The notes under the pieces were generated by a model that saw only the letters and a program-made list of their open reading frames with translations, did no database searches and was not told where the DNA came from. DNA of 64,000 bases, from positions 6,138,001 through 6,202,000 of the forward strand of contig NZ_CP065958.1 in NCBI RefSeq assembly GCF_041270065.1, written 5' to 3'. This document shows positions 15,072 to 37,366 of the stretch, piece after piece (positions within the stretch are counted from its first letter, which is position 1; every line of letters begins with the position of its first letter). The stretch comes from Streptomyces fradiae (GTDB taxonomy: Bacteria; Actinomycetota; Actinomycetes; Streptomycetales; Streptomycetaceae). A program made the position numbers and the translations under genes.

Positions 15072-15758
15072 TCAACCCGCCGCCGCGGGGACCGTGTTCC
15101 GCTGTCGCAGCAGCGCGGACAGATGGGCGCCCGCCTCGGCCGCCGCCCGCTCGGCGTCGCCGGCCCGCACCGCTTCCAGAAGCCTGCGGTGGAAGGCGAG
15201 TCCGGGCTCGGCGCCGCACGGATCCACGCAGGTCAGCACGCTGGCCAGCACCGCCTCGTAGAAACCGCGGTACAGGCCGGCCAGGACGCTGTTCCCCGTG
15301 AACTCCACGAGCGCCATGTGGAACGCGGTGTCCAGCTGCGCCAGGGTCTCCCACCGGCCCGCCCGCGCCACCGCCTCGCACTCCGCGAGCCGGGCCTCAA
15401 GGGCCCGCAGACCGTCCTCGTTCCGCACGTCGGCCGCGAGCCGCGCCGCCTCGACCTCCAGGCCGCGCCGCACCTGGAGCACGTCGCGCAGCTCGGCCGT
15501 GCGCAGGCGGCGCAGGGCGCCGGACAGCTCGCTGGTGGCCCGTACATACGTGCCGCTGCCCTGCCGCACCTGGAGGAGACCGGAATGCGAGAGCGCCCGG
15601 ACCGCCTCGCGGACGGTGTTGCGGGCCACCTGGAGTTCGTCGGCGAGCACCGGTTCGGTGGGGATGCGGTGGCCCACCGGCCAGGCGCCGGCGGTGATCC
15701 GCTGCCGCATGTGCTCGATCACCTGGTCGACCAGGAGGGCGCGGCGGACCGCCGTCAC
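15072..15758 (-). CDS. GntR/FadR-family regulator
   Basis: 228 residues. N-terminal GntR winged helix (residues 10-75, with PTEPVLADELQVARNTVREAVRAL) and an all-helical FCD effector domain (about 85-215) whose metal-binding residues include the DTAFHMAL and FHRRLLEA histidines. FCD proteins usually sense small carboxylic acids, so an aryl acid or a pathway intermediate could be the ligand. GTG start overlapping the thioesterase stop codon, so both genes are co-translated. Confidence 0.92.
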   Translation of the reverse strand: MTAVRRALLVDQVIEHMRQRITAGAWPVGHRIPTEPVLADELQVARNTVREAVRALSHSGLLQVRQGSGTYVRATSELSGALRRLRTAELRDVLQVRRGLEVEAARLAADVRNEDGLRALEARLAECEAVARAGRWETLAQLDTAFHMALVEFTGNSVLAGLYRGFYEAVLASVLTCVDPCGAEPGLAFHRRLLEAVRAGDAERAAAEAGAHLSALLRQRNTVPAAAG

Positions 15759-16519
15759 GACGAGAGCCTCGCCTCGAGCTCGGAATTCAGCACGGAGAGG
15801 AACGTCTCCGCATTGTCCCGGAGGAAGAAATGTCCGCCCTCGATCTCATGACAGCGGAAGCCCGCCGTGGTCTGCTCGGCCCAGGCGCGCACGTGCTCGA
15901 TCGGCGCGAGCCGGTCGCCGGGGCTGGTGAAGGCCGTGATCGGGTACGGCAGCGGAGCCTCGTCGCGGTACCGGTAGGTGTCCACCACCGCCAGGTCGGC
16001 CCGCAGCGTCCGTACCACCATCGCGCGCAGCTGCTCGTCCTCGAAGACCCAAGCCGGCGTGCCGTGCATCTCCATCACCCGCTGGACGAACTCCTCCTCC
16101 GGGAGGTGGTGGATGGCGGGCCACGGCGGCGTGATCTGCGCCGCTCCGCGGCCCGACACGATGACGAACTCGGGCGCCGGGCAGCCCTCGGCGCGCAGCC
16201 ACCGCGCGGTCTCGAAGGCCAGCAGGCTGCCCATGCTGTGCCCGAAGAGGGCGTAGGGCCGGTCGGTGCGCCCGGCCAGTACGGTGCCGAGCCGGGCGAC
16301 CACGTCGTCGAGCCGCCGCGCCGGCTCCTCGCGGAACCGCTCCTCGCGGCCGGGCAGTTGTACGGCGTTGACCTCCACCCCGGCCGGCAGCCGGTGCGCC
16401 CAGCCGCGGTACATGGACGCGCCGCCGCCCGCGTACGGCACGCAGAAGAGCCGCAGCCGGGCATCGGTGTCGGGCCGGGGGGTGATCAGCCACGGGCTCG
16501 TGCGGTTCGTGGTTTCCAT
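15755..16519 (-). CDS. Type II (editing) thioesterase
   Basis: 254-residue alpha/beta hydrolase. Nucleophile serine in GHSMGS, the family start CVPYAGGGASMYRGW and the catalytic histidine in IEGGHFFL are all present. TEII enzymes clear stalled or wrong acyl groups from carrier proteins of NRPS/PKS lines. In this cluster it could also free the product of the one-module PKS, which has no thioesterase domain of its own. ATG with GGAG 8 nt upstream. Confidence 0.93.
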   Translation of the reverse strand: METTNRTSPWLITPRPDTDARLRLFCVPYAGGGASMYRGWAHRLPAGVEVNAVQLPGREERFREEPARRLDDVVARLGTVLAGRTDRPYALFGHSMGSLLAFETARWLRAEGCPAPEFVIVSGRGAAQITPPWPAIHHLPEEEFVQRVMEMHGTPAWVFEDEQLRAMVVRTLRADLAVVDTYRYRDEAPLPYPITAFTSPGDRLAPIEHVRAWAEQTTAGFRCHEIEGGHFFLRDNAETFLSVLNSELEARLSS

Positions 16520-16554
16520 GGTGTTCTCCGGGACCTTTCCGTGGGTGGGCGAGC

Positions 16555-17112
16555 TCAGCGCGTCGTGGCGGCGGGCAGCCGGCCGGCGCAGGTGTCCAGG
16601 GCGTCCGCGACGGTGCGCACCTGCCGTACCGCCGCCAGCGAGCGCTCCGTCACGAACCCGCGCGCCCGGGCGTCGGCGACCCAGCCGAGCAGGCCGCCGA
16701 AGTGGTCGTCGGGGTCGAGCAGGACGAGGGGTTTGGCGTGCGCCCCGACCATGCGTTCCGTCCAGGCCGTGAAGATCTCGTCGCAGGTGCCGAGGCCGCC
16801 CGGCAGCGCGAGCAGCGCGTCGGCCTCGTCGCACATCCGCTGCTTGCGGGCGCTCATGCCCCGGGCGACCACCAGCCGGTCGCTGTCCCGGTCGGCGCGG
16901 TGCAGCAGCGAGTCCGAGACGATCCCGACCGTCTGCCCGCCGGCCGCCCGCGCGGCGGCGGCCACCGCGCCCATCATCGAGACGTGCTCGCCGCCGGAGA
17001 CCAGCGTCCAGCCGCGGGCGGCGACCGCCGTGCCCACCTCTTCGGCCAGCCGGACGTACCGGGCGTCGACCGCGTCCGAGGAGCTGCAGAAGACACACAC
17101 CGAAAGAGCCAT
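16555..17112 (-). CDS. LOG/TIGR00730-family phosphoribohydrolase, possibly acting on nicotinate mononucleotide
   Basis: 185 residues, Rossmann-like. LOG enzymes cleave the N-glycosidic bond of nucleoside 5'-monophosphates, giving free base and ribose 5-phosphate. The catalytic/phosphate block PGGLGTCDE and the MSARKQRM arginine-lysine pair are conserved, but the usual SGGG-x-x-GLMG loop reads SGGEHVSMMG, which suggests a changed substrate. Next to private nadABC genes, cleavage of nicotinate mononucleotide to nicotinate would supply the aryl-AMP ligase. That role is inference; a plain nucleotide-salvage role is the alternative. It starts 54 bp from the divergent PPTase gene. Confidence 0.85.
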   Translation of the reverse strand: MALSVCVFCSSSDAVDARYVRLAEEVGTAVAARGWTLVSGGEHVSMMGAVAAAARAAGGQTVGIVSDSLLHRADRDSDRLVVARGMSARKQRMCDEADALLALPGGLGTCDEIFTAWTERMVGAHAKPLVLLDPDDHFGGLLGWVADARARGFVTERSLAAVRQVRTVADALDTCAGRLPAATTR

Positions 17113-17166
17113 GGAAACCGTCCCGTCCGATCCGTTGTGCACAGGAGTCAAAGGAGTGGTGCTCGC

Positions 17167-18045
17167 GTGAGGGCCGTCGTCGAGAAGAGTGCGGAACTGC
17201 CGCACGGGACCGTCCACGTGTGGTGGGGGACGGTGGGCGAGCTGCGCCCGCACCACCGCGACCTGCTCGGCGCGGAGGAGCGGGAGCGCCTCGCGCAGCT
17301 GGTCAGGCCCGATGCGGTGGCCCGGTTCGTGATGGGCTGCGCCCTGATCAGACGGGCCGTGGGCGGCTACACGGGCCTCGCGCCCCGTGACGTACCGGTC
17401 GTCCGGGCCTGCGACGGATGCGGCGGACCGCACGGCAAGCCCCGGGTGGCCCTGGACGAGTCCTTCGAACTGTCCCTGTCCCACTCGGGCGACCACATCG
17501 CCCTCGCCGTGGCCCGGGAGACACCCGTGGGCATCGACGTCGAGTGCGACGACGGAACCATCGACCTGCCGGGACTCGCGCCCCGCATGCTGGCGCCCGC
17601 GGAGACGGCCGCCTACCGGGAGCTCCCGGAAACCGCGCGCCGGCGCCGGCTGCTCTCGGTGTGGACGTGCAAGGAGGCGGCACTGAAGGCGACCGGTGAC
17701 GGACTGCGGTTCCCCATGAACCGGCTGGGCGTCGACGATCCGGAGGGCGCGCCGCGGCTCACGCACTGGGAGGGCCGGCCCGGGCTCGCCGAGGAGATGC
17801 GGCTGGCCCGGCTCGACGCGCCGCCCGGCTACGCCGCGGTGCTCGCCGTGCTCGGACCGCCCGGATTCGCCGTACGGCACGGGGAGTTCGCGGACCTGAC
17901 CGGGGCCGACGCGCCTCATGAGCGGGCGGCCCGGTCGGCCGCCACCAGCCGCGCGGCCTCGGCCCGCAGCGCCACCTTGTTCACCTTGCCGACGCCGGCC
18001 AGCGGCAGCGCCTCCACCGGTACGAGCCGCTCCGGCAGCTTGTAG
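17167..18045 (+). CDS. 4'-phosphopantetheinyl transferase (Sfp type)
   Basis: 292 residues. Transfers phosphopantetheine from CoA to the carrier serine of the PKS, NRPS and free carrier proteins. It has the Mg-binding GIDVE motif and the WTCKEAALK signature. The GTG start has AGGAG 10 nt upstream. Its last 130 bp overlap the convergent ligase 1 gene on the other strand; the terminal 40 residues are low-complexity Ala/Ser/Thr and probably dispensable. Confidence 0.94.
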   Translation: MRAVVEKSAELPHGTVHVWWGTVGELRPHHRDLLGAEERERLAQLVRPDAVARFVMGCALIRRAVGGYTGLAPRDVPVVRACDGCGGPHGKPRVALDESFELSLSHSGDHIALAVARETPVGIDVECDDGTIDLPGLAPRMLAPAETAAYRELPETARRRRLLSVWTCKEAALKATGDGLRFPMNRLGVDDPEGAPRLTHWEGRPGLAEEMRLARLDAPPGYAAVLAVLGPPGFAVRHGEFADLTGADAPHERAARSAATSRAASARSATLFTLPTPASGSASTGTSRSGSL

Positions 18046-19706
18046 CGGGCAAGCCCCTTGTCCTCCAGGTGGCGCCGCAGCACGCGCAGGGCCGGCAGGC
18101 CGTCCTCGGTGCCCACGGCGAACAGGCACACGGCTTCCCCGTACAGCGGATGCGGCATCGCGACCGCCGCGACGGCGCGGACGCCCGGATGGGTCAGGAC
18201 GACGGCCTCCAGCTCGTCCGCGGGGATCTTCTCGCCGCCCCGGTTGATGACGTCCTTCACCCGCCCCGCGACCACCAGATTGCCGCTGGGGTGCAGCCGC
18301 ACCAGGTCGCCGGTGCGGTAGTAGCCGTCCGCGGTGAACGCGCGGGCGTTGCCCTCGTCCTCGCCGTAGTAGCCGGCCAGCACGCTCGGGCCCCGGGTGA
18401 GGAGTTCGCCGGTCTCCCCGGGGCCGACCTCGCGGCCGGACTCGTCGACGACGAGGAGGTCGTCGCCGGGGGCGGAGGGGCGGCCCTGGGTCTCGTCGAC
18501 CACCGCGTCCGGGTCGTCGAGCCGGGTGAAGTTCAGCAGGCCCTCGCTCATGCCGTAGACCTGCTGGACCTGACAGCCCAGCCGCTCGCGGACCCGGCGG
18601 GCGGTGGTGGCGTCGAGGCGCGCGCCACCGATCTGCAGCACCTGAAGGCTCGTCAGATCGTAGGTGCCCTCCTCGGTGCCCTCCTCGGCGGCGGCGAGCC
18701 ACTGGAGCAGGACCGCGGGGGCGAGCGCGCAGTGCGTCACCCCTTCGCGCTCGACGAGCGCGAGGGTCCGTCGGGGGTCGTCGGGGGAGTCGAGGACGAT
18801 CCGGCCGCCGCGCGAGAGTGTGCCGAGGATCCCGGGGTGGCCCAGGACGAAGCTGTGCGAGGCCGGCATCACCGCCAGGTAGACGGACGACTCGGTGAGC
18901 CCGGACACCTCGGCCGCGGAGTCGATCACATGCCCGAACGCCTCGTGGGGGCGGGGTATCGCCTTCGGCGGGCCGGTGGTCCCGCTGGAGAGCAGGAACA
19001 GTGCGTTGTCCCGCGGAGAGGGCGGCTCCGGGGCGTCGCCCGCGGCTTCGTCCGCGGCGTTGCGCGGCCCGTGGTTCGGGGCCTCGACGCCGGGCAGTAC
19101 GCCGCCCAGGGCCAGCGCCGTGAGGTCGGCCAGGCCCGCCGGGGCCGGTGCGTCCGTCCGGGCCGGTGCGTCCGTCCGGGCCGGCGTGTCCGTACGGACC
19201 GGCACGTCCGGGTCCGCCGTGCTCCGGTCCTCGCGGGTCACGAGCAGGGTGCGGATGCCCGGGTGGCGCTCCCGCAGGCGCTCGGCCATGGCCAGATGGT
19301 CGAAGCGGCGCGAGCGGCGCGGCACGGCCAGCGCGACCGGCTTGGTGACGCTCAGGACGTGCTCGAGTTCGTGCTCGCGCAGCGCCGGCAGGGCCACCAC
19401 CGGAGGCGCGCCCAGCCGGATCAGGGCGAGCGTGGTGACCACGTACTCCAGGCCGTTGGGCAGCTGGACGAGCACATGGTCGCCGCGGCCGATGCCGAGG
19501 CCGCGCAGCCGGGCCGCCGCCGTGTCGACGGCCGTGGCGAGTTCGCCGTACGTGAGGCGGTCGCCGCCGTCGACGACGGCACAGCGGTCCGGGTGGGCCG
19601 CCGACGCGGCGAGTGCCACGTCGGTGACGAGCTCGGGTCGCCACCAGCCGCGCCGGCGGTACTCCTCGGCGCGCTCCGCGGGGACGCGCACGGTGCCGTC
19701 GGTCAT
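17916..19706 (-). CDS. Aryl-AMP ligase 1 (EntE/DhbE-like), proposed nicotinate ligase
   Basis: 596-residue stand-alone adenylation enzyme that should load an aryl carboxylate on the carrier encoded directly upstream. ATP motif SGTTGPPK at 241-248, YRTGDLV and the C-terminal GVGKVNK lysine are intact. At the position of DhbE Asn235, which contacts an ortho hydroxyl, it has Ser285 (ASHSF), and DhbE Ser240 corresponds to His290. That suits an acid without an ortho hydroxyl, such as nicotinate. An 18-bp DNA repeat (three units, 19143-19196) encodes a PARTDA linker near residues 173-188. The start overlaps the carrier gene stop. Confidence 0.93.
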
Positions 19707-19978
19707 CGGGCGCCCTCTCCGGCGGCCTCGGCCCCGGCTCCGGCCGCGTTCCCCGCCTCCCGGTCGATCGCCCCGGCCAGTTCGGCCAGGGAGTAGTCGT
19801 GCCGGTCCCAGAGGTCGACCCGCGCCCGCAGCCGCTCCTCGATCTCCAGCTCCAGCTGCGCGGTCTCGGTGGAGTCCAGGGCGAGACCGGACCGCAGCCG
19901 GCAGCCGGGCGTCAGCTCGTCCTCCGCCACGCCCAGCTCCATGAGAATGCTGCGCAGTTCATCGAGAGTCGCGTTCAC
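19703..19978 (-). CDS. Free-standing aryl carrier protein 1
   Basis: 91-residue acyl carrier with the phosphopantetheine serine in LALDSTETAQLEL. GTG start behind a perfect AGGAGG. Coupled (ATGA) to ligase 1, so the pair should form an aryl-S-carrier. In the proposed route it presents nicotinyl to the KS of the one-module PKS at 23984. The C-terminal 20 residues are an Ala/Gly/Glu tail. Confidence 0.9.
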   Translation of the reverse strand: MNATLDELRSILMELGVAEDELTPGCRLRSGLALDSTETAQLELEIEERLRARVDLWDRHDYSLAELAGAIDREAGNAAGAGAEAAGEGAR

Positions 19979-20240
19979 AGAACCTCCTGGAGAAGGGCTT
20001 TCTCCGCGCGGGCTTTTGACGGTAAACCGGATGCCGGGCGGCCTTAATTCACGTGATGTGCCGTCATGCTAGCGCCCCGCCTGTTGCGATATTTCTCCGC
20101 TGCGCGGGAGTTCCGCACTTCTTTAGCGTCCGATATCCGGCCGACTGGCGAACTTTAAGTTCGGTTTTAGGCGGCTCGATTACGTTGTTTCTCTCGGACA
20201 AATTGGATCGCCAGGCTTTCGGTTGGAAGGGCTTGAACAG
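19979..20240. promoter_or_regulatory. Divergent promoter region, carrier 1 / nadA, with SARP-like repeats
   Basis: 262 bp of lower GC. On the plus strand TTTAG-like elements end in G at 20126, 20159 and 20170 (spacing 33 and 11 bp) and are followed, with 10 bp between, by a TACGTT -10-like box at 20181-20186. The second element is half of the palindrome CGAACTTTAAGTTCG (20149-20163). On the minus strand TAGCAT at 20071-20066 can serve as the -10 box of the carrier 1 operon. The same arrangement occurs at 39199-39265. This is the expected geometry of SARP binding. Confidence 0.6.
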
Positions 20241-21287
20241 ATGACGGCGGAAGCGAATCCCGTGCCGGCCACGTCCGGAACGGAGCGCGCGGAGGATGAC
20301 CTGACCCCGTACGGCGGGGTGGTGGCCGATGCGGCCTGGCGCGATGAGGTGCTGCGGCTCGCCGAACAGCACAACGCGGTGATCCTCGCGCACAATTACC
20401 AACTCCCGGAGATCCAGGAGATCGCCCACCACGTGGGCGACTCCCTCGGACTGAGCCGGATCGCCGCCGAGTGCGACGCCGACACGATCGTGTTCTGCGG
20501 CGTCCACTTCATGGCGGAGACGGCGAAGATGCTGGCCCCCGAGAAGCGGGTCATCATTCCGGACGCCCGGGCCGGCTGCTCGCTGGCCGACTCCATCACC
20601 GCCGCGGAGCTGCGGGAGTGGAAAGCCGAGCACCCGGGCGCCGTGGTGGTCTCGTACGTGAACACCACCGCCGAGGTGAAAGCGGAGACCGATATCTGCT
20701 GCACCTCCTCCAACGCGGTCGAGGTGGTCGAGTCGATCCCGGCCGACCGCGAGGTCCTCTTCTGCCCGGACCAGTTCCTCGGCGCCCACGTCAAGCGCGA
20801 GACCGGCCGGCAGAACATGCACATCTGGGCCGGCGAATGCCATGTGCACGCCGGTATCAATGGGCCCGAGCTGGCCGACCAGGCGGCCGCCAACCCCGAC
20901 GCCGACCTCTTCGTCCACCCGGAGTGCGGCTGCGCCACCTCCGCGCTCTACCTCGCGGGCGAGGGCATCGTGCCCGAGGAGCGGGTGCGGATCCTCTCCA
21001 CCGGCGGGATGCTCGACGCGGCCCGCGAGACCGGGGCCCGCTCCGTGCTCGTCGCGACCGAGATCGGGATGCTGCACCAACTGCGCAAGGCCGCGCCGGA
21101 GATCGACTTCCGGGCCGTCAACGAGCGCGCCTCCTGCCGCTACATGAAGATGATCACGCCGGCCGCGCTGCTGCGCGCGCTGCGCGAGGGCGCCGACGAG
21201 GTGCACGTGGACCCGGAGGTCGCCGCGCGCGGCCGGGAGTCCGTGCGGCGGATGATCGCCATCGGCCGGCCGGGCGGTGGCGAATGA
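20241..21287 (+). CDS. nadA: Quinolinate synthase
   Basis: 348 residues, [4Fe-4S] enzyme that condenses iminoaspartate with dihydroxyacetone phosphate to quinolinate. The three cluster cysteines are present: Cys113 (AGCSLAD), Cys229 (PECGCATS) and Cys299 (ASCRYMKM). The ATG used has GGAAGGG 10 nt upstream; a TTG six codons earlier is less likely. It starts an operon nadA-nadB-nadC-PKS joined by ATGA overlaps, so the gene is dedicated to the cluster rather than to general NAD supply, which these bacteria cover elsewhere. Confidence 0.96.
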
Positions 21288-22909
21288 CCGATCCGCGCTG
21301 GGCGGCCCGCGCGGACCTCGTGGTGGTGGGGACCGGCGTCGCCGGCCTCACCGCCGCGCTCACCGCCGCCGAACTCGGGCTGCGGGTCCTGGTGGTGACC
21401 AAGGGCGGTCCCGGCGACGGCAACACCCGGCACGCCCAGGGCGGCGTGGCCGTCGTGCTGCCGGCCGCGCACGAGCCCGGGGACACGGTCGGGCGGCACG
21501 CCCGGGACACCCACGTGGCCGGAGCCGGACTCTGCGAGCAGGACGCCGTCGAACGGATCGTCACCTACGGTCCTGACGCGGTCGAGCGGCTGCGCCGGAC
21601 CGGCGCCCGGTTCGACACCGGCGACGACGGCGCGCTCGCCCGTACCCGCGAGGGCGGTCACAGCGCCTTCCGCATCCTCCGCGCCGGCGGCGACGCCACC
21701 GGCGCGGAGGTGGAGCGGGCCCTCCTCGCGGCCGCCCGTGACCGGCGCGTCGCCGTGCTGACCGGACACACCGCCCTGGACGTGCTGCGCACGCCCGGCG
21801 GCGCGGTGGCGGGCCTCGCGGTGCTCGACTCGGCCGCCGTGCCGGGCCTGATCAGCGCCCCGGCCGTGCTCCTCGCCACCGGCGGCCTCGGCCAGCTCTA
21901 CCGGGCGACGTCCAACGCGGAGGGCGCCACCGGCGACGGGCTCGCCCTCGCGCTGCGCGCCGGAGCGAGCCTGGCGGACCTTGAATTCGTCCAGTTCCAC
22001 CCGACCGTGCTGTTCACCGGCCCCGGCGCGCACGGCCGCCGGCCGCTCGTCACCGAAGCCGTACGGGGCGAGGGCGGCGTCCTGGTGGACACCCGCGGAG
22101 AGCGGGTGATGGCCGGCGTGCACCCGCTCGCCGACCTCGCCCCGCGCGACGTCGTGGCCGCCGCGATCACCCGCCGCATGGCGGAGACGGGCAGCGACCA
22201 CGTCCTCCTTGACGCCACCCACCTCGGGCCGGAGGCCTTCCGGCGCCGGTTCCCGACCGTCCACGCCATGTGCGCCGCCGCCGGCGTCGACCCGTCGCGT
22301 GAGCCCATCCCGGTCGCGCCCGCGGCCCACTTCGCCTGCGGCGGAGTCGTCGCGACCGTCGACGGCCGCACCGAGGTGCCCGGCCTGTACGCGGCCGGCG
22401 AGGTCGCCCGTACCGGACTCCACGGAGCCAACCGGCTCGCCTCCAACAGCCTGCTCGAAGGGCTCGTGGTGGGGGAGCGGGCGGCGCGGGCCGCCGCGGC
22501 CGATCTGCGCGACCGCGCCCCGGCGGATCCGGACGCCGCCGGATGGCCGGACCGCACCGCGCCCGCGGCGGTGGCGGACCGCGCCGTCCTGCAGCGGACG
22601 ATGACCCGCCACGCGGGCATCGGCCGCACCGCGGCCGGCCTGGCGGAGGCCGCCGGCACCGTCGCCGCCGTCTCCCACCGCCACCCGCTCGACTCGGCCC
22701 GCGCGGTCGAGGACGCGGCCCTCACCCTGGTGGCCGACGCCCTTCTCGCCGCCGCGGCCGAGCGCCGCGAGACCCGCGGCTGCCATGTCCGCACCGACTT
22801 CCCCGACACCGACGACACCGCCTGGGGCCGCTCGACGACCGTGCGCCTGGCCGAGTCCACCGGTCGGCCGGTCGTCAACCGTCCCGTTCCCGTGGGAGGA
22901 GCAGCATGA
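21284..22909 (+). CDS. nadB: L-aspartate oxidase
   Basis: 541-residue FAD enzyme of the succinate dehydrogenase/fumarate reductase flavoprotein group; oxidises L-aspartate to iminoaspartate for NadA. FAD motif [17 protein letters not shown], the HAQGG block, EFVQFHPT and [14 protein letters not shown] are intact. Start overlaps the nadA stop. Its last 17 codons are part of a 155-bp tandem duplication that separates it from nadC. Confidence 0.96.
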
Positions 22910-23165
22910 TCGCCGAGGTCTGGTCGCCCGCGACCGACGAGCGGCTGCGCGCCGCCGGCGTCGACGTCGAGAGCGCCTGGTGCGTGGTCGTCACCGCGCT
23001 GCTGGACGGGTCCACCGGTCGGCCGGTCGTCAACCGTCCCGTTCCCGTGGGAGGAGCAGCATGATCGCCGAGGTGTGGTCGCCCGCGACCGACGAGCGGC
23101 TGTGCGCCGCCGGCGTCGACGTCGAGGACGCGCGCCGCGTCGTCGTCACCGCGCTGGAGGAGGAC
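22855..23165 (+). repeat. 155-bp tandem duplication across the nadB/nadC junction
   Basis: Two adjacent copies (from 22855 and from 23010) carry the 3' end of nadB, the ribosome site GGGAGGAGC, and the first 30 or so codons of nadC. Nearly identical for about 125 bp, the copies then drift over the last 30 bp. The unit is 155 bp, not a multiple of three, yet it recreates the ATGA coupling at its own end. It looks like a fairly recent unequal duplication that was tolerated because nadC kept a full copy. Confidence 0.92.
22906..23064 (+). pseudogene. 52-codon hybrid mini-ORF created by the duplication
   Basis: Starts at the ATG overlapping the nadB stop with the NadC N-terminus ([14 protein letters not shown]), then runs out of the nadC frame into a second copy of the NadB tail ([17 protein letters not shown]) and ends in a TGA that overlaps the true nadC ATG at 23061. 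Probably non-functional as a protein, but translation through it could keep nadC coupled to nadB. Confidence 0.7.
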
Positions 23166-26900: not shown

Positions 26901-29656
26901 TCCTCGACGACCACGCGGTCGGCGACCACGTCGTCGCCCGGCTGACCGGGCGCGGACACCGGGTGGTGACGGTCCGGGCCGGCGACGCCTGGCACGAGCT
27001 TGGCGACGGGCGCTACACCGTACGGCCCGACCGCGCCGAGGACTACGCCGCCCTGCTGCGCGAGCTCGACCGGGCCGGCGCACTGCCGCGGCACATCGTG
27101 CACTGCTGGACCGTGACCGGCCCCGACGACGTCCCGGACCCCGGCGAGCTCCGCCGGCGGGCCTTCGACAGCCTGCTGTTCCTGGCCCAGGCGCTCGGCG
27201 CGACCGGCGCCGCCGGCGAGGTCGACGTCACGGTCGTCTCCAGCGACCTGCACCCGCTGCACGGCAGCGGCTCGCAGCCGGGCAAGGCCCTGCTGCTCGG
27301 CCCCACCCAGGTCTGGCCGCGCGAGTCGGCCGGCGTCGCCTGCCGCAGCGTGGACATCAGCCTCACCGCCCCCGCGAGCCGCCGTGACGTGCCCCGGGCC
27401 CTGGACGCCCTCGTGGCGCAGCTGCACCAGCCCGTCACCGACCACCAGATCGCGCTGCGCGGCACCGGCCGCTGGCGGCGGGTGTTCCTGCCCGCCCCGG
27501 TCGACCGCACCGAGCAGCCCCATCCCCGGCTGCGCCCGGGCGGCACCTACCTGATCACCGGCGGTCTGGGCGGCATGGCCCTGGAGCTGGCCGGGCACCT
27601 GGCCCGGACGGCCGGTGCCAACCTGGTGCTGGTCGGCCGGCACGGGCTGCCGCCCCGCGAGGAGTGGGACGCCCTGACCGCCGGGACGGGCACGGACGCC
27701 ACGCTCGTCCGGCGGATCGAGCGGGTACGGAGCCTCGAGGAGTCCGGCGCCCGCGTCGAGGTCGTCCGCGCCGACATCACCGACGGCCCGGCCGTGGCCG
27801 CGGCGATGCGGCACGCCGTGGAGCGCTTCGGGGCCGTGCATGGCGTCGTGCACGCCGCGGGAGTGCCCGGCGGCGGCCTGATGCAGCTCAAGGACCCGGC
27901 GGCGGCCGCCGAGGTGCTCGCCCCGAAGGTGGAGGGCACGCTCGCGCTCCTCGACGCCTGCCGCCAGGTCGCGGCGGACCTGGACTTCGTCGTCCTGTGC
28001 TCCTCCCTGCTCTCCGTCACCGGCGGGCTCGGGCAGGTGGACTACTGCGCGGCCAACGCCTTCCTGGACGCCGTCGCCCACCACCACGACGCCCTCGGCG
28101 ACCTGCCGGTCACGGCGATCGACTGGGACGCCTGGCGCGAGGTCGGCATGGCCGAGCGCACGGTCGGCGGGTCCGCCGGGGCGAACCCCGGCGCCGGCGC
28201 CGCCGCGGAGACCGGCCATCCGCTGCTCACGCGCCGGCTCACCGCCACCGAGCGGCACGCGGTCTACGCGGCCGACTTCAGCGCGGACCGCAGCTGGCTC
28301 GTCGACGAGCACCGCATGCTGGGCCACCCGGTCGTCCCCGGCACCGGTCACCTGGAGCTGGTCCGGGCTGCGGTGGCCGAGCACTCCGGCCGGGAGCCGC
28401 GGGAGCTGTCGGACATCACCTTCCTCTCCCCGATCGTGGTGGACGAGAACCGGCCCCGCGAGGTCCGGGTGGTGCTCGACCGCAGCGGAGACGCCTCTAC
28501 GTTCTCCGTGGTCAGCCGGTACGACGGCAAGGCCGCCTGGCAGCTCAACTCGACCGGCCGGGCGACCGTCGGCGACCGGGGGGACCGGCCGGACACCGAG
28601 CGCCGCCACGCCGAGCGCCTGGACATCGCGGCCCTGACCGGGCCGGACGGCCTGCGCCCGGTGGAACGTCCCGTGCACGAGGGCCCGATGGGCTTCGCGG
28701 GCCGCTCGCTGTGCCTGGAGCGGATGTACGCCGGCGACCGGGAGTACCTGGCCCTGCTCGCGCTCCCGGAGCGGTACGCCCACGAGGTCCCGGAGCTGGC
28801 CCTCCACCCGTCGCTGATGGACCTCGCGACCGCCTTCGTCGGGGTGCACGCGGCGAAGGAGTTCCGCATTCCCATCTCGTACGGCCGGGTCACCCAGTAC
28901 GCCCCGCTCACCGCCCGCGTCTACAGCCACCACCGCTATGCCGTGGCCGACGACCCGGCGCTCGAGACCCTCTCCGCCGACGTGACGATCACCGACGAGG
29001 ACGGGCGTGTGCTGGTCGTCGTCGAGGGATTCGTCCTGAAGCGGACCGGTGACCTCACCGAACGCCTCGCGGGCCTGCGCAGCGGTACGTCCGAGGAGAT
29101 CGTCGGCTACCGCTTCGCCGAGGCCGAGGCCGAGGCCGAGGACGAGGACGGGCCGGGGCGCGAGGCCCCGGGCGTCGCCTTCCTGCGGCAGCAGCTGGCG
29201 CAGGGCATCCGGCCGGACGAGGGCGTGGCCGCCTTCGACCGGATCCTGGCGGCGGCCCCGGGCCCCCAGGTCGCCGTGTGCACCCAGGACCTGGACGCGG
29301 TCATGGCCCAGGTGATCGCCGAGGGCGCGGGCGCGGGCCCGCGGGAGGACGCCGCCGGCGCCGCTCCGGCCGGCCCCGCCCACCCCCGGCCGCATCTGAT
29401 GACCCCGTACACCGCCCCGCGCGGGGACACCGAGAGCGCGCTGGCCGCGCTCTGGCAGGACCTGCTCGGCCTGGACCGGGTCGGCGCGCACGACGACTTC
29501 TTCGAGCTCGGCGGGCACTCCCTGCTCGGCATCCAGCTCGCGGCGCGGCTGCGCGCGGAGCTGGGCGTCGACGTGGCCGTCGGCACCGTCTTCAACGCGC
29601 TCACGGTGGCCGGTCTCGCCGCCGTCGTGGACCGGCTGAAGGAGGAGGCGCGGTGA
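23984..29656 (+). CDS. One-module type I polyketide synthase KS-AT-KR-DH-ACP
   Basis: 1890 residues. KS with Cys187, His323 and His363; AT with Ser661 in GYSLGEY and malonyl-type HAFH at 757-760; KR with an NADPH motif near 1193 and Tyr1354 (VDYCAANAF); DH with His1443 in HRMLGHPVVP and Asp1613 (SLMDLATAF, the usual Gln/His four residues later is Ala); ACP Ser1846 (GGHSLLG). The KR precedes the DH, the reverse of the common cis-AT order. There is no loading module and no thioesterase. It is co-transcribed with nadABC and followed by hydroxymalonyl-ACP genes. I infer that it extends nicotinyl-carrier 1 by one hydroxymalonyl unit to the enol of 3-pyridylpyruvate. Acidic linker EAEAEAEDED near 1710. 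Confidence 0.92.
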   Translation: MSRRETATADTATADVPDDRIAVVGIGCRFPGADGPGAFWRNLRDGTESVTFFDDRQLAAAGVPEALRADPAFVGAQAVLEDEFGFDAGLFGINPREADIMDPQHRLMLMCAWEALEDSGRRPDRLGGKVGVFAGGYRSDYLRHVRTDGDAAAEFARDVANDSDYLATRVSYKLNLTGPSVTVQTACSTSLVAVHLACQSLLLGESDTALAGGATVRSGHQRGYVFQRGGILSSDGHCRAFDAAAEGTVIGDGVGVVVLRRLADALADGDPIRAVILGSAVGNDGADRVGFTAPGVQGQSEVIRTALERAGAHPHTIGYVETHGSGTPLGDRIEVDALDRAFRAAGWREGDCALGSVKTNIGHTHAAAGIAGLIKTVLSLQHRMLPPTLHFERPNPRIRFARTPFRVNAELTAWTADSGPLRAGVSSFGLGGTGAHVVLEQAPEPVRAQEDGPDRAEPRADWQLLPVSARTPEGAEQAAERLAAHLADRPGLRLADVARTLQDGRSHFPHRRIALARDLDGAVAALRGGSADALFAGRAADDAPPVAFLLTGLGDQYPQMGRQLYETEPVFRAEVDRCAALLKERSGIDLPAALYPGPAPAPAAEPDQGPDLRRLLGRGTDPVDGLSETEQAQPALFVVEYALARLLEHWGVRPDALIGYSLGEYVAACLSGVLTLEDALTLVAARAELIGRLAPGRMLAVPLPESRVRPLLGERLSLAAVNGPELCVLSGEPDAIAAVEADLAAEGVAARRLNATHAFHSVMMEPLVEEFTRLVAGFALKPPSVPYLSNVTGDWITDEQATDPGYWARHLREPVRFADGVRKLWDEPDRVLLEVGPGSTLGGIALRNRPAEDAAAQLVLATLPPSFDRRPAAAFLRGTLGKLWLAGVPVRWPALDGGPVRVALPTTPFDLREHRVTPRWETEQAPPAAPALVRKENLAEWFSVPAWEPLPPLLAGAGAAGEPTDEPADWLVFLDDHAVGDHVVARLTGRGHRVVTVRAGDAWHELGDGRYTVRPDRAEDYAALLRELDRAGALPRHIVHCWTVTGPDDVPDPGELRRRAFDSLLFLAQALGATGAAGEVDVTVVSSDLHPLHGSGSQPGKALLLGPTQVWPRESAGVACRSVDISLTAPASRRDVPRALDALVAQLHQPVTDHQIALRGTGRWRRVFLPAPVDRTEQPHPRLRPGGTYLITGGLGGMALELAGHLARTAGANLVLVGRHGLPPREEWDALTAGTGTDATLVRRIERVRSLEESGARVEVVRADITDGPAVAAAMRHAVERFGAVHGVVHAAGVPGGGLMQLKDPAAAAEVLAPKVEGTLALLDACRQVAADLDFVVLCSSLLSVTGGLGQVDYCAANAFLDAVAHHHDALGDLPVTAIDWDAWREVGMAERTVGGSAGANPGAGAAAETGHPLLTRRLTATERHAVYAADFSADRSWLVDEHRMLGHPVVPGTGHLELVRAAVAEHSGREPRELSDITFLSPIVVDENRPREVRVVLDRSGDASTFSVVSRYDGKAAWQLNSTGRATVGDRGDRPDTERRHAERLDIAALTGPDGLRPVERPVHEGPMGFAGRSLCLERMYAGDREYLALLALPERYAHEVPELALHPSLMDLATAFVGVHAAKEFRIPISYGRVTQYAPLTARVYSHHRYAVADDPALETLSADVTITDEDGRVLVVVEGFVLKRTGDLTERLAGLRSGTSEEIVGYRFAEAEAEAEDEDGPGREAPGVAFLRQQLAQGIRPDEGVAAFDRILAAAPGPQVAVCTQDLDAVMAQVIAEGAGAGPREDAAGAAPAGPAHPRPHLMTPYTAPRGDTESALAALWQDLLGLDRVGAHDDFFELGGHSLLGIQLAARLRAELGVDVAVGTVFNALTVAGLAAVVDRLKEEAR

Positions 29657-29718
29657 CGGCCGCCCCGGCGAAAGCCCGCCCGGAGGACGAACGGAACGAC
29701 AACGGCATGGAGGAGAAC

Positions 29719-30591
29719 ATGGAAGCGCTGCGCGCGGTGGGTGTGGCCGGCGCCGGAGTGATGGGCCGCGAGGTGGCCCAGGTGCTGTCCCAGCACGGAC
29801 TGCGGGTCGTCCTCGTCGACGTCTCCGAGGAGGCGCTGGACGGGGCCCGCAGGGCCATCGAGCAGAAGGTCCGCTTCCAGCGGCTGCTGGGCGCCGGCGG
29901 ACCGGAGGTCCCCGTCGCCGAGGTGCTGGAGCGGATCACCTTCGCCACCGACTACAGCGGGTTCACCGAGGTCGACTTCGTCATCGAGAACGTCACCGAG
30001 GACTGGGAGACCAAGCGCCGGGTGTACGAGGAGATCGACCGGCTCTGCCCGGAGCACGCCGTCTTCGCGGTGAACACCTCCTGCATCCCGATCACCAAGG
30101 TGGGCGGCGCGGTGTCGCGCCCGGACCGGGTCATCGGCACCCACTTCATGAACCCGGTCACGCAGAAGCCGGTCGTCGAGGTCATCCGGGGGCACCACAC
30201 CTCCGAGGCGACCATCGCCACCACACAGCGGCTGCTCGCGGCCATGGGCAAGGAGGGCATCGTCGTCAACGACGCCCCCGGCTTCGTGTCCAACCGCGTG
30301 CTCATGCTGACCATCAACGAGGCGGCCTTCCTCCTCCAGGACGGCGTCAGCACCGTCGAGGACGTCGACCGGATCTTCAAGACCTGCTTCGGCCACACGA
30401 TGGGGCCGCTGGAGACGGCCGACCTCATCGGCCTCGACACCATCCTGCTCTCGATCGAGGGCCTGTACGAGAGCTTCGCCGACAGCAAGTACCGGCCCTG
30501 CCCGCTGCTGCAGCGCATGGTCCACGCCGGACTGCACGGCCGCAAGAGCGGCCACGGCTTCTACGACTACGGCGGGCGGCCCGCCGCCTGA
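29719..30591 (+). CDS. 3-hydroxyacyl-CoA dehydrogenase-like enzyme of hydroxymalonyl-ACP formation (FkbK type)
   Basis: 290 residues. NAD-binding GAGVMG at the N-terminus, then the HTHFMNPV-type catalytic histidine block (IGTHFMNP) and the C-terminal domain of the family. In the FkbH-K-J-I systems it oxidises the C3 hydroxyl of glyceryl-ACP. ATG 29719 has GGAGG 5 nt upstream; a GTG at 29653 overlapping the PKS stop would add 22 residues and cannot be excluded. Confidence 0.9.
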   Translation: MEALRAVGVAGAGVMGREVAQVLSQHGLRVVLVDVSEEALDGARRAIEQKVRFQRLLGAGGPEVPVAEVLERITFATDYSGFTEVDFVIENVTEDWETKRRVYEEIDRLCPEHAVFAVNTSCIPITKVGGAVSRPDRVIGTHFMNPVTQKPVVEVIRGHHTSEATIATTQRLLAAMGKEGIVVNDAPGFVSNRVLMLTINEAAFLLQDGVSTVEDVDRIFKTCFGHTMGPLETADLIGLDTILLSIEGLYESFADSKYRPCPLLQRMVHAGLHGRKSGHGFYDYGGRPAA

Positions 30592-30662
30592 CGCGGCCCC
30601 GCCCTCCACCCTCCCCCTCACCCGAACACCCTCACCCGCACACCCGCACAGAGAGGTCCCCG

Positions 30663-30917
30663 ATGGACGCCATCAAGTCCGCCACCAGGGAATTCATCGG
30701 CAAGTACGTACGCAACCGGGAACTCGGCGACAGCGACGACCTGTTCGCCTCCGGCTTCGTGAACTCGCTCTTCATCATGCAGCTGGTGATGTTCGTGGAG
30801 AGCGAGCTGGCGACCCCGGTCGCCGACGAGGACCTCCGGATGGACAACTTCCGCAGCGTGGACGCCGTGGCCGCCTTCGTGGCGCGCAAGGCCGCGGCCG
30901 CCACGCCGACCGCCTGA
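30663..30917 (+). CDS. Acyl carrier protein for the hydroxymalonyl extender unit (FkbJ type)
   Basis: 84 residues with the attachment serine in SGFVNSLFIMQLV. In characterised methoxy- and hydroxymalonyl systems this carrier receives the glyceryl group from 1,3-bisphosphoglycerate and carries it through both oxidations to the AT of a PKS. Flanked by the two dehydrogenase genes on the same strand. A pyrimidine-rich 71-bp leader precedes it. Confidence 0.92.
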   Translation: MDAIKSATREFIGKYVRNRELGDSDDLFASGFVNSLFIMQLVMFVESELATPVADEDLRMDNFRSVDAVAAFVARKAAAATPTA

Positions 30918-30935
30918 CGACCACGGGGTAGCACG

Positions 30936-32072
30936 ATGCAGTTGACGGCGCGGCAGGAGAGCCTGTTCGCGGAAGCCCGGTCCTACGCGGCGGCGGAGAT
31001 CGCCCCGTACGCCGGTGCGTGGGACGAGAACGAGGCCGTGCCCGAATCGGCCGTCGCCGGCTTCGCCGCGCGCGGCCACCTCGGTGCCCTGGTGCCTCGC
31101 GAGTACGGAGGCGCCGGGCTCGACGCGGTCTCCTTCGGACTGCTGAACGAGGCGGTCGGGCACGCCTGTTCGTCGATGCGCAGTCTGCTGACCGTGCACA
31201 GCATGGTGGTGCACGCGGTGACCCGCTGGGGGAGCGAGGAGCAGCGCGCCCACTGGCTGCCCCGCCTCGCCGCCGGCGAGAGCGTCGGCGCCTTCGGGCT
31301 CTCCGAGGCCGAGGCCGGCAGCGACGCCGGGCGGCTGAGCACCACCGCGGAACGCCTGCCGGACGGCGGCTACACCCTCACCGGCGCCAAGAAGTGGACC
31401 ACCTTCGGACAACGGGCCGACGTCTTCCTGGTGTTCGCCCGGCTCGACGGGCAGATCACCGCGTTCCTCGTCGGACGCGACGCACCCGGCCTGGAGGTCG
31501 TACCCGTCACCGGCATGCTCGGCACCCGGGCCTCGCTCCTGGCCGAACTGCGGATGGACGACTGCCGGGTGCCGGCCGACGCCCTCGTGGGGCGGCCGGG
31601 CTTCGGCCTGTCGGCGGTGGCCACCAGCGCGCTGGACATCGGCCGCTACAGCGTGGCGTGGGGGTGCGTCGGCCTGCTCGCCGCGTGCGCCGACGCCGCC
31701 ACGGCGCACGCGGACCGGCGCGTCCAGTTCGGCCGGCCGCTGGGCGAGCACCAGCTGGTACGCCGCATGATCGCCGACATGGTCACCGACGCGACCGCGG
31801 CCCGGCTGCTGTGCCTGCGGGCGGGGCGGCTGAAGGACGCGGGCGACCCGGCGACCGTGGACGCGACCTGGATGGCCAAGTACTTCGCCTCCGTCAAGGC
31901 GTTCCGTGCGGCGGCCGACACCGTACAGATCTTCGGGGCCGCGGGCTGCGCCGAGGGCCACCCGGCCCAGCGCATGCTCCGGGACGCCAAGATCATGGAA
32001 ATCATCGAGGGAAGCACCCAAGTGCAGCAGGACTACCTGGCGCAGGCCGCCCTGCGGGAGCGTGCCGCATGA
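30936..32072 (+). CDS. Acyl-CoA dehydrogenase-like oxidase of hydroxymalonyl-ACP formation (FkbI type)
   Basis: 378-residue flavoprotein with the acyl-CoA dehydrogenase signatures (FGLSEAEAGSDAG in the FAD/substrate region and EGSTQVQQ near the C-terminus). It completes oxidation of the carrier-bound glyceryl aldehyde to the carboxylate. Stop overlaps the fkbH-like start (ATGA). Confidence 0.92.
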   Translation: MQLTARQESLFAEARSYAAAEIAPYAGAWDENEAVPESAVAGFAARGHLGALVPREYGGAGLDAVSFGLLNEAVGHACSSMRSLLTVHSMVVHAVTRWGSEEQRAHWLPRLAAGESVGAFGLSEAEAGSDAGRLSTTAERLPDGGYTLTGAKKWTTFGQRADVFLVFARLDGQITAFLVGRDAPGLEVVPVTGMLGTRASLLAELRMDDCRVPADALVGRPGFGLSAVATSALDIGRYSVAWGCVGLLAACADAATAHADRRVQFGRPLGEHQLVRRMIADMVTDATAARLLCLRAGRLKDAGDPATVDATWMAKYFASVKAFRAAADTVQIFGAAGCAEGHPAQRMLRDAKIMEIIEGSTQVQQDYLAQAALRERAA

Positions 32073-33160
32073 GCGAGACCGGCACGACCGCGAAGACCGC
32101 CGAGACCGCCGAGACCGCCGAGACCGCCGACACCGGCAAGACCGTGAAGTGCGTGGTGTGGGACCTGGACCACACCGTCTGGGACGGAGTCCTCCTGGAG
32201 GACGGGCGGGTCACCGTGCGGCCCGGCGTCGCCGACGCCATCCGGACCCTGGACGAGCGCGGCATCCTCCACTCGATCGCCAGCCGCAACGACCACGCCG
32301 CCGCCATGGCCCGGCTCGAAGAGCTCGGCCTGGCTGAGTACTTCCTGCACCCGCAGATCAACTGGGGTGCCAAGTCGGCGTCCGTGCGGTCCGTGGCCGA
32401 GGCGCTGAACATCGGCCTGGACACGATCGCGTTCATCGACGACCAGCCCTTCGAGCGGGACGAGGTCTCCTTCGCGCTTCCGCAGGTGCGCTGCCTGGAC
32501 GCGGCCGAGCTGCCCGGACTGACCCGGCTGCCGGAGCTGATGCCGCGCTTCGCGACGGACGACTCCCGGCGCCGCCGCGAGATGTACCGGGCGGACCAGG
32601 TACGGAAGGACGCCGAGGAGCGGTTCGACGGAGCCCAGGACGAGTTCCTGGCCCGCCTCGGCATGCGGTTCGAGATCGCCCCCGCGGGCGAGCCGGACCT
32701 GCAGCGCGCCGAGGAACTGACCGTCCGCACCAATCAGTTGAACACGACCGGCGTCACCTACTCGTACGAGGAGCTCGACGCCTTCCGCACCTCGGACCGG
32801 CACCTGCTGCTCACCGCCTCGCTCACCGACCGGTACGGGCCGTACGGCACCATCGGGCTCGCCCTGGTGGAGAAGGGGGAGGAGGACTGGCACCTCCGGC
32901 TGCTGCTGATGTCCTGCCGGGTGATGTCGCGGGGCGTGGGAACCGTGCTGATCAACCACGTCAAGCGGCTGGCCCGGGACGCCGGGGCCCGGCTGATCGC
33001 GGACTTCGTGCCGACCGACCGCAACCGGATGATGTACGTCTCCTTCAAGTTCAACGGCTTCGAGGAGATCTCCCGCGAGGACGGGCGGGTGCGGTTCGCC
33101 GCCGACCTGTCGTCCATCCCGCCGGACCCGGCCTACCTCGACGTCCGGGCAGCCGGCTGA
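32069..33160 (+). CDS. FkbH-like glyceryl transferase/phosphatase
   Basis: 363 residues. HAD-type phosphatase motif DLDHTVWDG with the nucleophilic first aspartate, and the conserved SCRVMSRGV cysteine region that holds the glyceryl thioester in FkbH proteins. Loads D-1,3-bisphosphoglycerate on the carrier protein with dephosphorylation. The N-terminal TAETAETAETAD run is coded by a 9-bp ACCGCCGAG repeat and looks disordered. No O-methyltransferase (FkbG) is present anywhere in the window, so the unit made should be hydroxymalonyl, not methoxymalonyl. Confidence 0.94.
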   Translation: MSETGTTAKTAETAETAETADTGKTVKCVVWDLDHTVWDGVLLEDGRVTVRPGVADAIRTLDERGILHSIASRNDHAAAMARLEELGLAEYFLHPQINWGAKSASVRSVAEALNIGLDTIAFIDDQPFERDEVSFALPQVRCLDAAELPGLTRLPELMPRFATDDSRRRREMYRADQVRKDAEERFDGAQDEFLARLGMRFEIAPAGEPDLQRAEELTVRTNQLNTTGVTYSYEELDAFRTSDRHLLLTASLTDRYGPYGTIGLALVEKGEEDWHLRLLLMSCRVMSRGVGTVLINHVKRLARDAGARLIADFVPTDRNRMMYVSFKFNGFEEISREDGRVRFAADLSSIPPDPAYLDVRAAG

Positions 33161-35806: not shown

Positions 35807-36033
35807 GACCGGGGCTCCTGCTCCTGGGCCTGCTCCTGGGTGGCGGGGCGCGGGCCGGTGCTGCCGGCGATGCCCCAGCGGTGGGCCGGGACGGGTGTGA
35901 GGACGATCCAGGTCTGGTCCCGGATCTCCTCGCCGAACACGTTCACCGTCGCCTGGGTGAGCTGTTCGACCAGCTCCCGCTCGGTCTGCTCGGTCAGACG
36001 CTGTTCGAAGATCTTGACCTCGATGAAGGGCAT
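35803..36033 (-). CDS. 4-oxalocrotonate tautomerase-family protein
   Basis: 76 residues with Pro next to the initiator Met (MPFIEVKIFE), the catalytic base after Met removal, and a body of the 4-OT/MIF fold followed by a polar tail. Members catalyse keto-enol tautomerisation, including that of phenylpyruvate. In this cluster it could act on an enol of 3-pyridylpyruvate or on piperideine-type intermediates on the way to picolinate. Good AGGA site; co-translated with DUF5819. Confidence 0.85.
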   Translation of the reverse strand: MPFIEVKIFEQRLTEQTERELVEQLTQATVNVFGEEIRDQTWIVLTPVPAHRWGIAGSTGPRPATQEQAQEQEPRS

Positions 36034-37305: not shown

Positions 37306-37366
37306 ACGGAGGTACCCCCATGACGGAAAGGCGTCCCGCGCCGTGCGGGACGTGGGCTGATGGGTG

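What the first reader, a model, noticed from the sequence alone, without database searches (positions are those of the whole stretch)
15755..33160. Proposed PKS-based route from nicotinate to 3-(3-pyridyl)-L-alanine
Seen: private nadA-nadB-nadC joined by overlaps to a single-module PKS (KS-AT-KR-DH-ACP), a ligase/carrier pair divergent from them, and hydroxymalonyl-ACP genes directly after. Inference: nicotinyl-carrier plus one hydroxymalonyl unit gives 3-oxo-2-hydroxy-3-pyridylpropionyl-ACP; KR makes the diol; DH removes the beta hydroxyl and leaves the enol of 3-pyridylpyruvate; TEII could release it, the 4-OT-like protein could tautomerise it, and the HisC-like enzyme (61401) would transaminate it. 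The nicotinate carboxyl carbon becomes C-beta. This would be a polyketide two-carbon homologation from aryl acid to alpha-amino acid, which I do not know from any described pathway. Every required activity has a gene in the window.
Basis: inference. Interest (0 to 1): 0.94.

Follow-up and report, generated by a model that had tools for sequence, protein, structure and literature searches.

The report
Polyketide route to pyridomycin's pyridyl-alanine
Beside the assembly line of a pyridomycin-type antibiotic cluster, a Streptomyces-like bacterium carries a second set of NAD-precursor genes, a one-module polyketide synthase and genes predicted to make a hydroxymalonyl building block, which together likely turn nicotinate (vitamin B3) into the antibiotic's rare amino acid 3-(3-pyridyl)-L-alanine by a route that would be new for amino acids.

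Summary
The genes are real and sit where stated. The window is a pyridomycin-type cluster (A-domain codes Thr and Phe-like, methylating PKS, NRPS with embedded KR, Ser-His-Lys SDR, FabV). The producer D. fulvum has the same assembly line and the whole cassette (70-88% identity), placed differently relative to the NRPS genes. The pyridomycin structure leaves no place but 3-(3-pyridyl)-L-alanine (3PA) for a second PKS and a hydroxymalonyl unit (inference). New here: a LOG-family gene (16555-17112, -) that would release nicotinate from NaMN; homologues lie in the cluster of a same-type ligase in three other genomes, once next to nadA. Ligase 1 has lost the Asn that lig2 and salicylate/DHB ligases keep. 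PKS plus hydroxymalonyl operon recurs in Streptomyces HPF1205 (49-63%). HisC-like 61299-62522 is nearest a phenylalanine aminotransferase. Against: AT motifs do not point to hydroxymalonyl; the DH second motif is unusual; the tautomerase belongs more likely to 3-hydroxypicolinate; the release step is unsure. Nothing was tested biochemically, and the two central pyridomycin papers were not readable, so priority is unknown. Verdict: likely right in outline; new pathway logic from known parts.

The parts
15755..16519 (-). type II thioesterase, possible release of pyridylpyruvate
   Evidence: Pfam PF00975 3.4e-45; 80-98% in L003-L006
16555..17112 (-). LOG-family phosphoribohydrolase, predicted to cut NaMN to nicotinate + ribose-5-P
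   Evidence: TIGR00730 163 bits over cut-off 96; best PDB 3qua, then 7w2i; next to the lig1 homologue in L008, one P450 away in L007, next to nadA and 14 kb from the ligase in G475
17167..18045 (+). reads like a 4'-phosphopantetheinyl transferase (not scanned); overlaps the end of lig1
   Evidence: 71-96% in L003-L005; only a 36-residue match, lying over the lig1 end, in L006 D. fulvum
17916..19706 (-). ligase 1, predicted nicotinate-AMP ligase
   Evidence: AMP-binding; pocket HSFVLGHPG, Asn of DHB/salicylate ligases replaced by Ser
19703..19978 (-). discrete carrier 1 (predicted nicotinyl carrier)
   Evidence: no Pfam hit; LALDSTE in the sequence; 70-92% in L003-L006
20241..21287 (+). NadA, quinolinate synthase
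   Evidence: PF02445 3.6e-110
21284..22909 (+). NadB, L-aspartate oxidase
   Evidence: PF00890/PF02910
23061..23987 (+). NadC, quinolinate phosphoribosyltransferase
   Evidence: PF01729/PF02749
23984..29656 (+). one-module PKS KS-AT-KR-DH-ACP
   Evidence: Pfam; motifs
29653..30591 (+). 3-hydroxyacyl dehydrogenase of the hydroxymalonyl-ACP operon
   Evidence: PF02737/PF00725
30663..30917 (+). predicted hydroxymalonyl carrier protein
   Evidence: PF00550
30936..32072 (+). acyl-CoA/ACP dehydrogenase of the operon
   Evidence: PF00441, PF02771, PF02770
32069..33160 (+). FkbH, predicted glyceryl loading
   Evidence: TIGR01686 296 bits over cut-off 147
33292..34032 (+). SDR with Ser-His-Lys in place of Ser-Tyr-Lys (Pyr2-like)
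   Evidence: PF13561; His is residue 154 if the start is Met at 33292; longest ORF starts 33181
35803..36033 (-). tautomerase, assigned here to the 3-hydroxypicolinate side
   Evidence: PF01361; beside DegT, lig2 and luc homologues in JHA26
36049..37398 (-). DegT-type aminotransferase, assigned here to the 3-hydroxypicolinate side
   Evidence: PF01041; linkage
37462..39096 (-). ligase 2 (PyrA-like, 3-hydroxypicolinate)
   Evidence: AMP-binding; keeps Asn in the pocket
39276..39554 (+). carrier 2 (PyrU-like)
   Evidence: PF00550
39615..40688 (+). luciferase-like monooxygenase
   Evidence: PF00296
41857..48288 (+). NRPS with two C, two A and two carrier domains; Thr, then predicted 3PA
   Evidence: Pfam; codes DFWNVGMVH and DAWTVASVS
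48281..52498 (+). PKS KS-AT-MT-ACP (PyrF-like)
   Evidence: Pfam
52585..59910 (+). NRPS with C, A, KR, carrier and TE domains (PyrG-like)
   Evidence: Pfam
61299..62522 (+). HisC-like aminotransferase, predicted pyridylpyruvate to 3PA
   Evidence: NF002878 500 bits over 374; best PDB 4r2n, putative phenylalanine aminotransferase; 78% in D. fulvum
63037..64000 (+). FabV-like enoyl reductase (cut by window end), likely self-resistance
   Evidence: PF12241/PF12242

Best explanation
In this pyridomycin-type gene cluster the cassette at 15.8-33.2 kb is predicted to make 3-(3-pyridyl)-L-alanine by extending nicotinate with one hydroxymalonyl unit on a one-module polyketide synthase, after which a HisC-like aminotransferase would finish the amino acid. 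Inferred steps: NadB/NadA make quinolinate from aspartate and DHAP; NadC makes NaMN; the LOG-family enzyme releases nicotinate; ligase 1 loads it on carrier 1; FkbH, HADH and ACAD build hydroxymalonyl-ACP from a glycolytic C3 unit; KS condenses; KR gives the diol; DH removes the beta hydroxyl, giving the enol of 3-pyridylpyruvoyl-ACP; hydrolysis (TEII or spontaneous) gives 3-pyridylpyruvate; HisC transaminates. 3PA would then be used by the second module of the NRPS at 41857. Shown: gene content, motifs, conservation and linkage. Not shown: any substrate or product.
For: Cluster identity: D. fulvum (pyridomycin producer, passages of PMC10683483) holds the cassette genes at 70-88% identity together with the same NRPS-PKS genes (77-80%), in a different block order. 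In three more Streptomyces loci (L003-L005) the cassette is present and DegT, tautomerase and part of lig2 lie near by; their NRPS genes were not fetched. The units of pyridomycin as described in PMC12862043 (passages) leave no other place for a second PKS or a hydroxymalonyl unit (inference). A-domain codes Thr and Phe-like. LOG homologue in the cluster of a lig1-type ligase in L007, L008 and G475, there next to nadA. Ligase pocket. PKS and HADH-ACP-ACAD-FkbH at 49-63% together in HPF1205. KS, KR and ACP motifs and the DH first motif and Asp are in place. The best AT match in 149 other genomes lies in an AT-ACP-methyltransferase protein right before a HADH-ACP-ACAD-FkbH operon (G462; hydroxy- or methoxymalonyl). 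HisC nearest 4r2n.
Against: The AT lid reads HAFH (malonyl-type; RAFH in 5 of 6 orthologue proteins) and its RXR site is A-A-R, not hydrophobic throughout; GYSxG is also seen in 169 of 197 ATs of the nearest non-orthologous homologues; the AT does not group with ZmaA-AT; several other close AT matches (G142, G437, G479, G415, G455) lie in genomes not among the 25 with an FkbH match. The DH second motif is DxxxA, not DxxxQ/H. No releasing domain on the PKS; TEII may only edit. HPF1205 shows no nad or HisC match in the 60 kb read, so it supports the PKS-hydroxymalonyl pairing but not the amino acid end.
Confidence: 0.72

Rival explanations
1. The PKS uses malonyl-CoA and makes 3-(3-pyridyl)acrylate or its beta-hydroxy acid, which another enzyme aminates; the hydroxymalonyl genes serve something else.
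For: HAFH lid and an AT clade shared with many PKSs not known to sit beside hydroxymalonyl genes.
Against: HADH overlaps the PKS by 4 nt; PKS and operon stay together in D. fulvum and HPF1205; no ammonia lyase or aminomutase among the 40 window ORFs scanned with Pfam; the pyridomycin units leave no other use for hydroxymalonyl-ACP (inference).
Confidence: 0.13
2. nadABC, LOG and ligase 1 supply the 3-hydroxypicolinate starter or a separate nicotinyl metabolite, and 3PA comes from elsewhere.
For: Nicotinate-type ligases with LOG occur in other PKS clusters with no hydroxymalonyl match in the stretches held (L007, L008, G475).
Against: 3-hydroxypicolinate has its own ligase/carrier pair, and lig2, car2, luc, DegT and tautomerase homologues occur in JHA26 with no nad match on that 27-kb contig. 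The cassette lies with the pyridomycin assembly line in the two loci where both were read (window, D. fulvum) and with its DegT/lig2 genes in three more.
Confidence: 0.1
3. A variant of the best explanation, not exclusive of its first part: route as proposed, but DegT (36049-37398) rather than HisC makes the final amino acid.
For: DegT lies beside the carrier-ligase-PKS-hydroxymalonyl cassette in HPF1205.
Against: In S. rimosus and JHA26 DegT stands with an aryl ligase and no hydroxymalonyl match in the stretches read; HisC is nearer to a phenylalanine aminotransferase.
Confidence: 0.15

Closest known systems
Pyridomycin gene cluster (S. pyridomyceticus NRRL B-2517; D. fulvum)
   Same: ligase/carrier, PyrE/F/G-like assembly line, Pyr2-like SDR, and in D. 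fulvum the nad-PKS-hydroxymalonyl cassette
   Different: the cluster papers could not be read, so whether they assign the cassette to 3PA is unknown; gene names Pyr are partly recalled
Zwittermicin hydroxymalonyl-ACP genes and ZmaA-AT (PMC4207774, passages); butyrolactol operon (PMC5355916, passages)
   Same: HADH, ACP, ACAD, FkbH set; glycolytic two-carbon unit; no O-methyltransferase near butyrolactol genes, as here
   Different: there the hydroxyl stays in a polyol; here DH would turn it into an enol, i.e. an alpha-keto acid; AT not in the ZmaA branch
Pyridinopyrone PKS with nicotinate starter (PMC10268602, passages)
   Same: nicotinate proposed as PKS starter
   Different: malonyl extension to a pyrone; A domain of an NRPS proposed to load it; no nad genes mentioned in the passages seen
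Cyclosporin Bmt, a PKS-derived amino acid (recalled)
   Same: PKS carbon chain becomes an alpha-amino acid
   Different: alpha oxygen comes from later oxidation, not from the extender unit
Nikkomycin pyridyl amino acid (recalled)
   Same: aryl acid with a pyridine ring becomes an amino acid
   Different: aldehyde plus aldol route

Membership tests
pyridomycin cluster | Thr-activating then aromatic A domain in a two-module NRPS | tested here: met
   DFWNVGMVH; DAWTVASVS, positions read by eye with PheA numbering recalled
pyridomycin cluster | methylating PKS followed by NRPS with embedded KR and TE | tested here: met
pyridomycin cluster | same genes in a known producer | tested here: met
   D. 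fulvum CP073720
pyridomycin cluster | pyridomycin made by this strain | not testable with these tools
   no metabolite data
hydroxymalonyl-ACP operon | FkbH, ACP, HADH, ACAD together, no O-methyltransferase between PKS and SDR | tested here: met
AT specific for ACP-bound hydroxymalonyl | hydrophobic RXR site and non-HAFH lid as in ZmaA-AT (PMC4207774, passages) | tested here: not met
   site A-A-R, lid HAFH here; RAFH in 5 of 6 orthologue proteins
AT specific for ACP-bound hydroxymalonyl | same AT type beside the operon in unrelated clusters | tested here: inconclusive
   GYSxG ATs beside it in HPF1205, G462, G507, G499, G505; only GHS ATs found by the pattern in the 40 kb or less read around it in G506, G496, G504, G501; G142 and others have the AT without an FkbH match
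LOG phosphoribohydrolase | TIGR00730 above cut-off and PGGxGT motif | tested here: met
   163.3 vs 96.35 bits; LPGGLGTCDE in the sequence
LOG phosphoribohydrolase | cytokinin-specific equivalog NF058542 | tested here: not met
   188.8 vs 300 bits
DHB-AMP ligase | TIGR02275 above cut-off | tested here: not met
   500.3 vs 723.55 bits
HisC/phenylalanine aminotransferase | NF002878 above cut-off | tested here: met
   500 vs 374 bits; TIGR01141 hisC also passed, 283.6 vs 276.55
functional PKS DH | HxxxGxxxxP and DxxxQ/H | tested here: inconclusive
   first met, Asp kept, Q/H replaced by Ala in window, 6 orthologues and HPF1205

The most novel reading that the evidence does not exclude
A polyketide synthase module performs a two-carbon homologation of an aryl acid to an aryl-alanine: hydroxymalonyl-ACP supplies C1, C2 and the alpha oxygen, and KR plus DH unmask the alpha-keto acid on the carrier. 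A private nicotinate supply (NadABC plus a LOG-type NaMN phosphoribohydrolase) feeds it. The same module type in HPF1205 would apply the trick to another acid.
Probability: 0.62. Interest if true: 0.86.

Novelty: new variant of a known kind. Interest (0 to 1): 0.74.

Why it matters
Pyridomycin is a direct InhA inhibitor active on M. tuberculosis (PMC12862043, passages), and none of the passages I saw explains where its 3-(3-pyridyl)-L-alanine comes from. If right, this is a new way to build alpha-amino acids, perhaps programmable through the starter ligase, and it gives a biosynthetic handle on pyridomycin analogues. It would also be the first role I know of for a LOG-type enzyme in nicotinate supply.

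Tried and rejected
AT fingerprint as proof of hydroxymalonyl use: first seemed good (in the first loci GYSxG ATs were seen only in the PKSs with the operon), then failed on wider samples. Tautomerase as pyridylpyruvate tautomerase: set aside after JHA26. DegT as the final transaminase: kept as a rival. Structure prediction was not run. Frequency of ligase 1: the genus search failed twice; the phylum draw gave 2 of 396 genomes at 1e-140 and relatives 2 of 150 at 1e-130, own genome included in both. Homologue search of the PKS: 7611 proteins passed among 7991 scored, 120 listed, of which 6 match the whole query at 79-98%. Literature: nine searches, of which I saw the listings; passages were read in five papers. 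No listing or passage stated this route. Huang 2011 and Huang 2022 are not held, so absence from print is not claimed.
Full report
The observation. All named genes are present in the stated order. Four of the junctions overlap by 4 nt; nadB and nadC are parted by 151 nt because of a 155-bp tandem repeat at 22847-23156 that SKN60 has once. The genome holds another nadA, nadB and nadC; the cluster NadA is only 31% identical to the other one, so this is a second, unlike set and not a recent copy.

What the cluster is. Pfam gives ligase 2 plus carrier 2, an NRPS with two C, A and carrier domains, a KS-AT-MT-ACP PKS and an NRPS with C, A, KR, carrier and TE, then MbtH, P450, HisC-like protein, flavin reductase and a FabV-like enoyl reductase. 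The A-domain codes are DFWNVGMVH (Thr) and DAWTVASVS (Phe-like) (positions read by eye with recalled PheA numbering). The SDR after FkbH has Ser-His-Lys in place of Ser-Tyr-Lys, with His at 154 if the gene starts at 33292, as I recall for Pyr2 of the pyridomycin pathway (abstract recalled; paper not held). Pyridomycin is built from 3-hydroxypicolinate, Thr, 3PA, propionate and a 2-hydroxy-3-methylpent-2-enoate unit (PMC12862043, passages). D. fulvum, a producer (PMC10683483, passages), has the same line and the same cassette.

Why the cassette belongs to 3PA. In D. fulvum the block TE-LOG-lig1-car1 / nadA-nadB-nadC-PKS-HADH-ACP-ACAD-FkbH-SDR lies on the other side of the NRPS genes than in the window, yet is intact: TE 80%, lig1 73%, car1 70%, LOG 78%, nadA 87%, nadB 85%, nadC 79%, PKS 79%, HADH 83%, ACP 77%, ACAD 86%, FkbH 84%, SDR 88%; only the gene at 17167-18045 is not there as such. 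Three more Streptomyces loci (L003-L005) have the cassette up to the start of HADH, where the stretch ends, with DegT, tautomerase and part of lig2 about 18 kb away as in the window; their NRPS genes were not fetched. No unit of pyridomycin other than 3PA is left for a second PKS and a hydroxymalonyl unit. This is inference from the structure, not a test.

Nicotinate supply. The ORF 16555-17112 (-) is a LOG-family protein (TIGR00730 163 bits, cut-off 96; cytokinin equivalog missed, 189 of 300; PDB 3qua, 7w2i). Homologues at 57-64% lie beside a lig1-type ligase in Saccharothrix (L008) and one P450 gene away from it in Lentzea (L007), with no nad match in the 21.6 kb held for each. Ligase 1 differs from DHB/salicylate ligases, which keep HN[FY] in the five alignments shown: it reads HSFVLGHPG, while lig2 reads FNFTWGCPG and keeps Asn. 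The HSF..GHPG pocket is found in 11 ligases (window, L003-L010, L012, G475); a LOG match lies in the same stretch in 8 of these 11, and in 3 of the 6 outside the pyridomycin type (L009, L010, L012 have none within 10 kb). L011 and L014 have HGF..NCPG, G260 HAFAFSAPG; none of these three has a LOG match in the stretch read.

PKS and hydroxymalonyl. KS Cys/His, KR Tyr/Lys, DH HxxxGxxxxP and Asp, and ACP Ser are in place. The DH second motif reads DLATA, in HPF1205 DLANA, where DxxxQ/H is usual. In Streptomyces HPF1205 a 49% identical KS-AT-KR-DH-ACP protein is followed by HADH 58%, ACP 51%, ACAD 59%, FkbH 63%, with a carrier (62%) and ligase (54%) upstream. No methyltransferase was found between PKS and SDR.

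AT specificity. ZmaA-AT, the solved hydroxymalonyl AT, is the second best PDB match and 5yda the first. But the GYSxG motif is shared by 169 of 197 ATs found by a regular expression in 114 non-orthologous homologues, the lid is HAFH or RAFH, the RXR site is A-A-R, and the tree of 57 ATs puts ZmaA with the other PKS of this cluster and 5yda instead. In 150 genomes (14 candidates or fewer scored in each) the best AT match outside the window is in G462 (57%), in an AT-ACP-methyltransferase protein whose ORF ends 15 bases before a HADH-ACP-ACAD-FkbH operon; with a methyltransferase there, the unit may be methoxymalonyl. Next come ATs from genomes not among the 25 with an FkbH match at 1e-70 (G142, G437, G479, G415, G455). 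So AT sequence does not decide; linkage and the product structure carry the argument.

End of the route. HisC-like 61299-62522 passes NF002878 (500 vs 374 bits; TIGR01141 is also passed, 283.6 vs 276.6) and its best PDB match by far is 4r2n, putative phenylalanine aminotransferase (340 bits, next 141). DegT, tautomerase and luciferase-like homologues occur with lig2 and carrier 2 homologues on one contig of JHA26, so I place them with 3-hydroxypicolinate. The TEII is a candidate for release, but a TE also sits beside FkbH in 8 of the 10 other FkbH stretches read and in butyrolactol (table in passages), so it may edit instead.

Novelty. The listings of nine paper searches and the passages read show no paper with this route; the two key pyridomycin papers are not in the library, and PMC10683483 announces a further manuscript on the D. 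fulvum cluster. All parts are known kinds; the combination as an amino acid pathway is what would be new.

Noticed in passing
window 63037-64000 (+): FabV-like enoyl reductase at the end of the pyridomycin-type cluster, kept in D. fulvum (81%); likely self-resistance to an InhA-type inhibitor.
   Followed up: partly
window 22847-23156: 155-bp tandem duplication (92% match) at the nadB/nadC junction, single copy in SKN60; both genes stay open.
   Followed up: yes
window 7392-12367: PEP mutase, TPP decarboxylase, class V aminotransferase, fatty-acid hydroxylase and acyltransferase: a possible phosphonate or phosphonolipid cluster next door; all five matched in L003-L005, none in L006.
   Followed up: no
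L081 10941-19610: JHA26: flavin reductase, DAO oxidase, luciferase-like, DegT, tautomerase, lig2 and carrier 2 homologues, with chorismate-binding and DAHP-synthase genes on L082: likely a 3-hydroxypicolinate-type starter cassette.
   Followed up: partly
L084 3966-17121: HPF1205: DegT, carrier, ligase, KS-AT-KR-DH-ACP PKS and hydroxymalonyl operon beside a different PKS/NRPS line; product unknown.
   Followed up: partly
L168-L169 (G475): Nicotinate-type ligase, NadA and LOG with modular PKS and no hydroxymalonyl match: likely a nicotinyl-starter polyketide.
   Followed up: partly
L009, L010, L012 around 5.7-11.6 kb: Small recurring group around a carrier and HSF..GHPG ligase: two similar upstream ORFs (the L010 copies have no Pfam hit) and, in L010, an alpha/beta hydrolase.
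   Followed up: no
L118 14072-16693: AT-ACP-FkbM-type methyltransferase protein directly before a HADH-ACP-ACAD-FkbH operon.
   Followed up: partly
L135, about 15387-19569 (own genome C1 6572387-6576571): A second HADH-ACP-ACAD-FkbH set in the same genome, beside NRPS/PKS genes.
   Followed up: no
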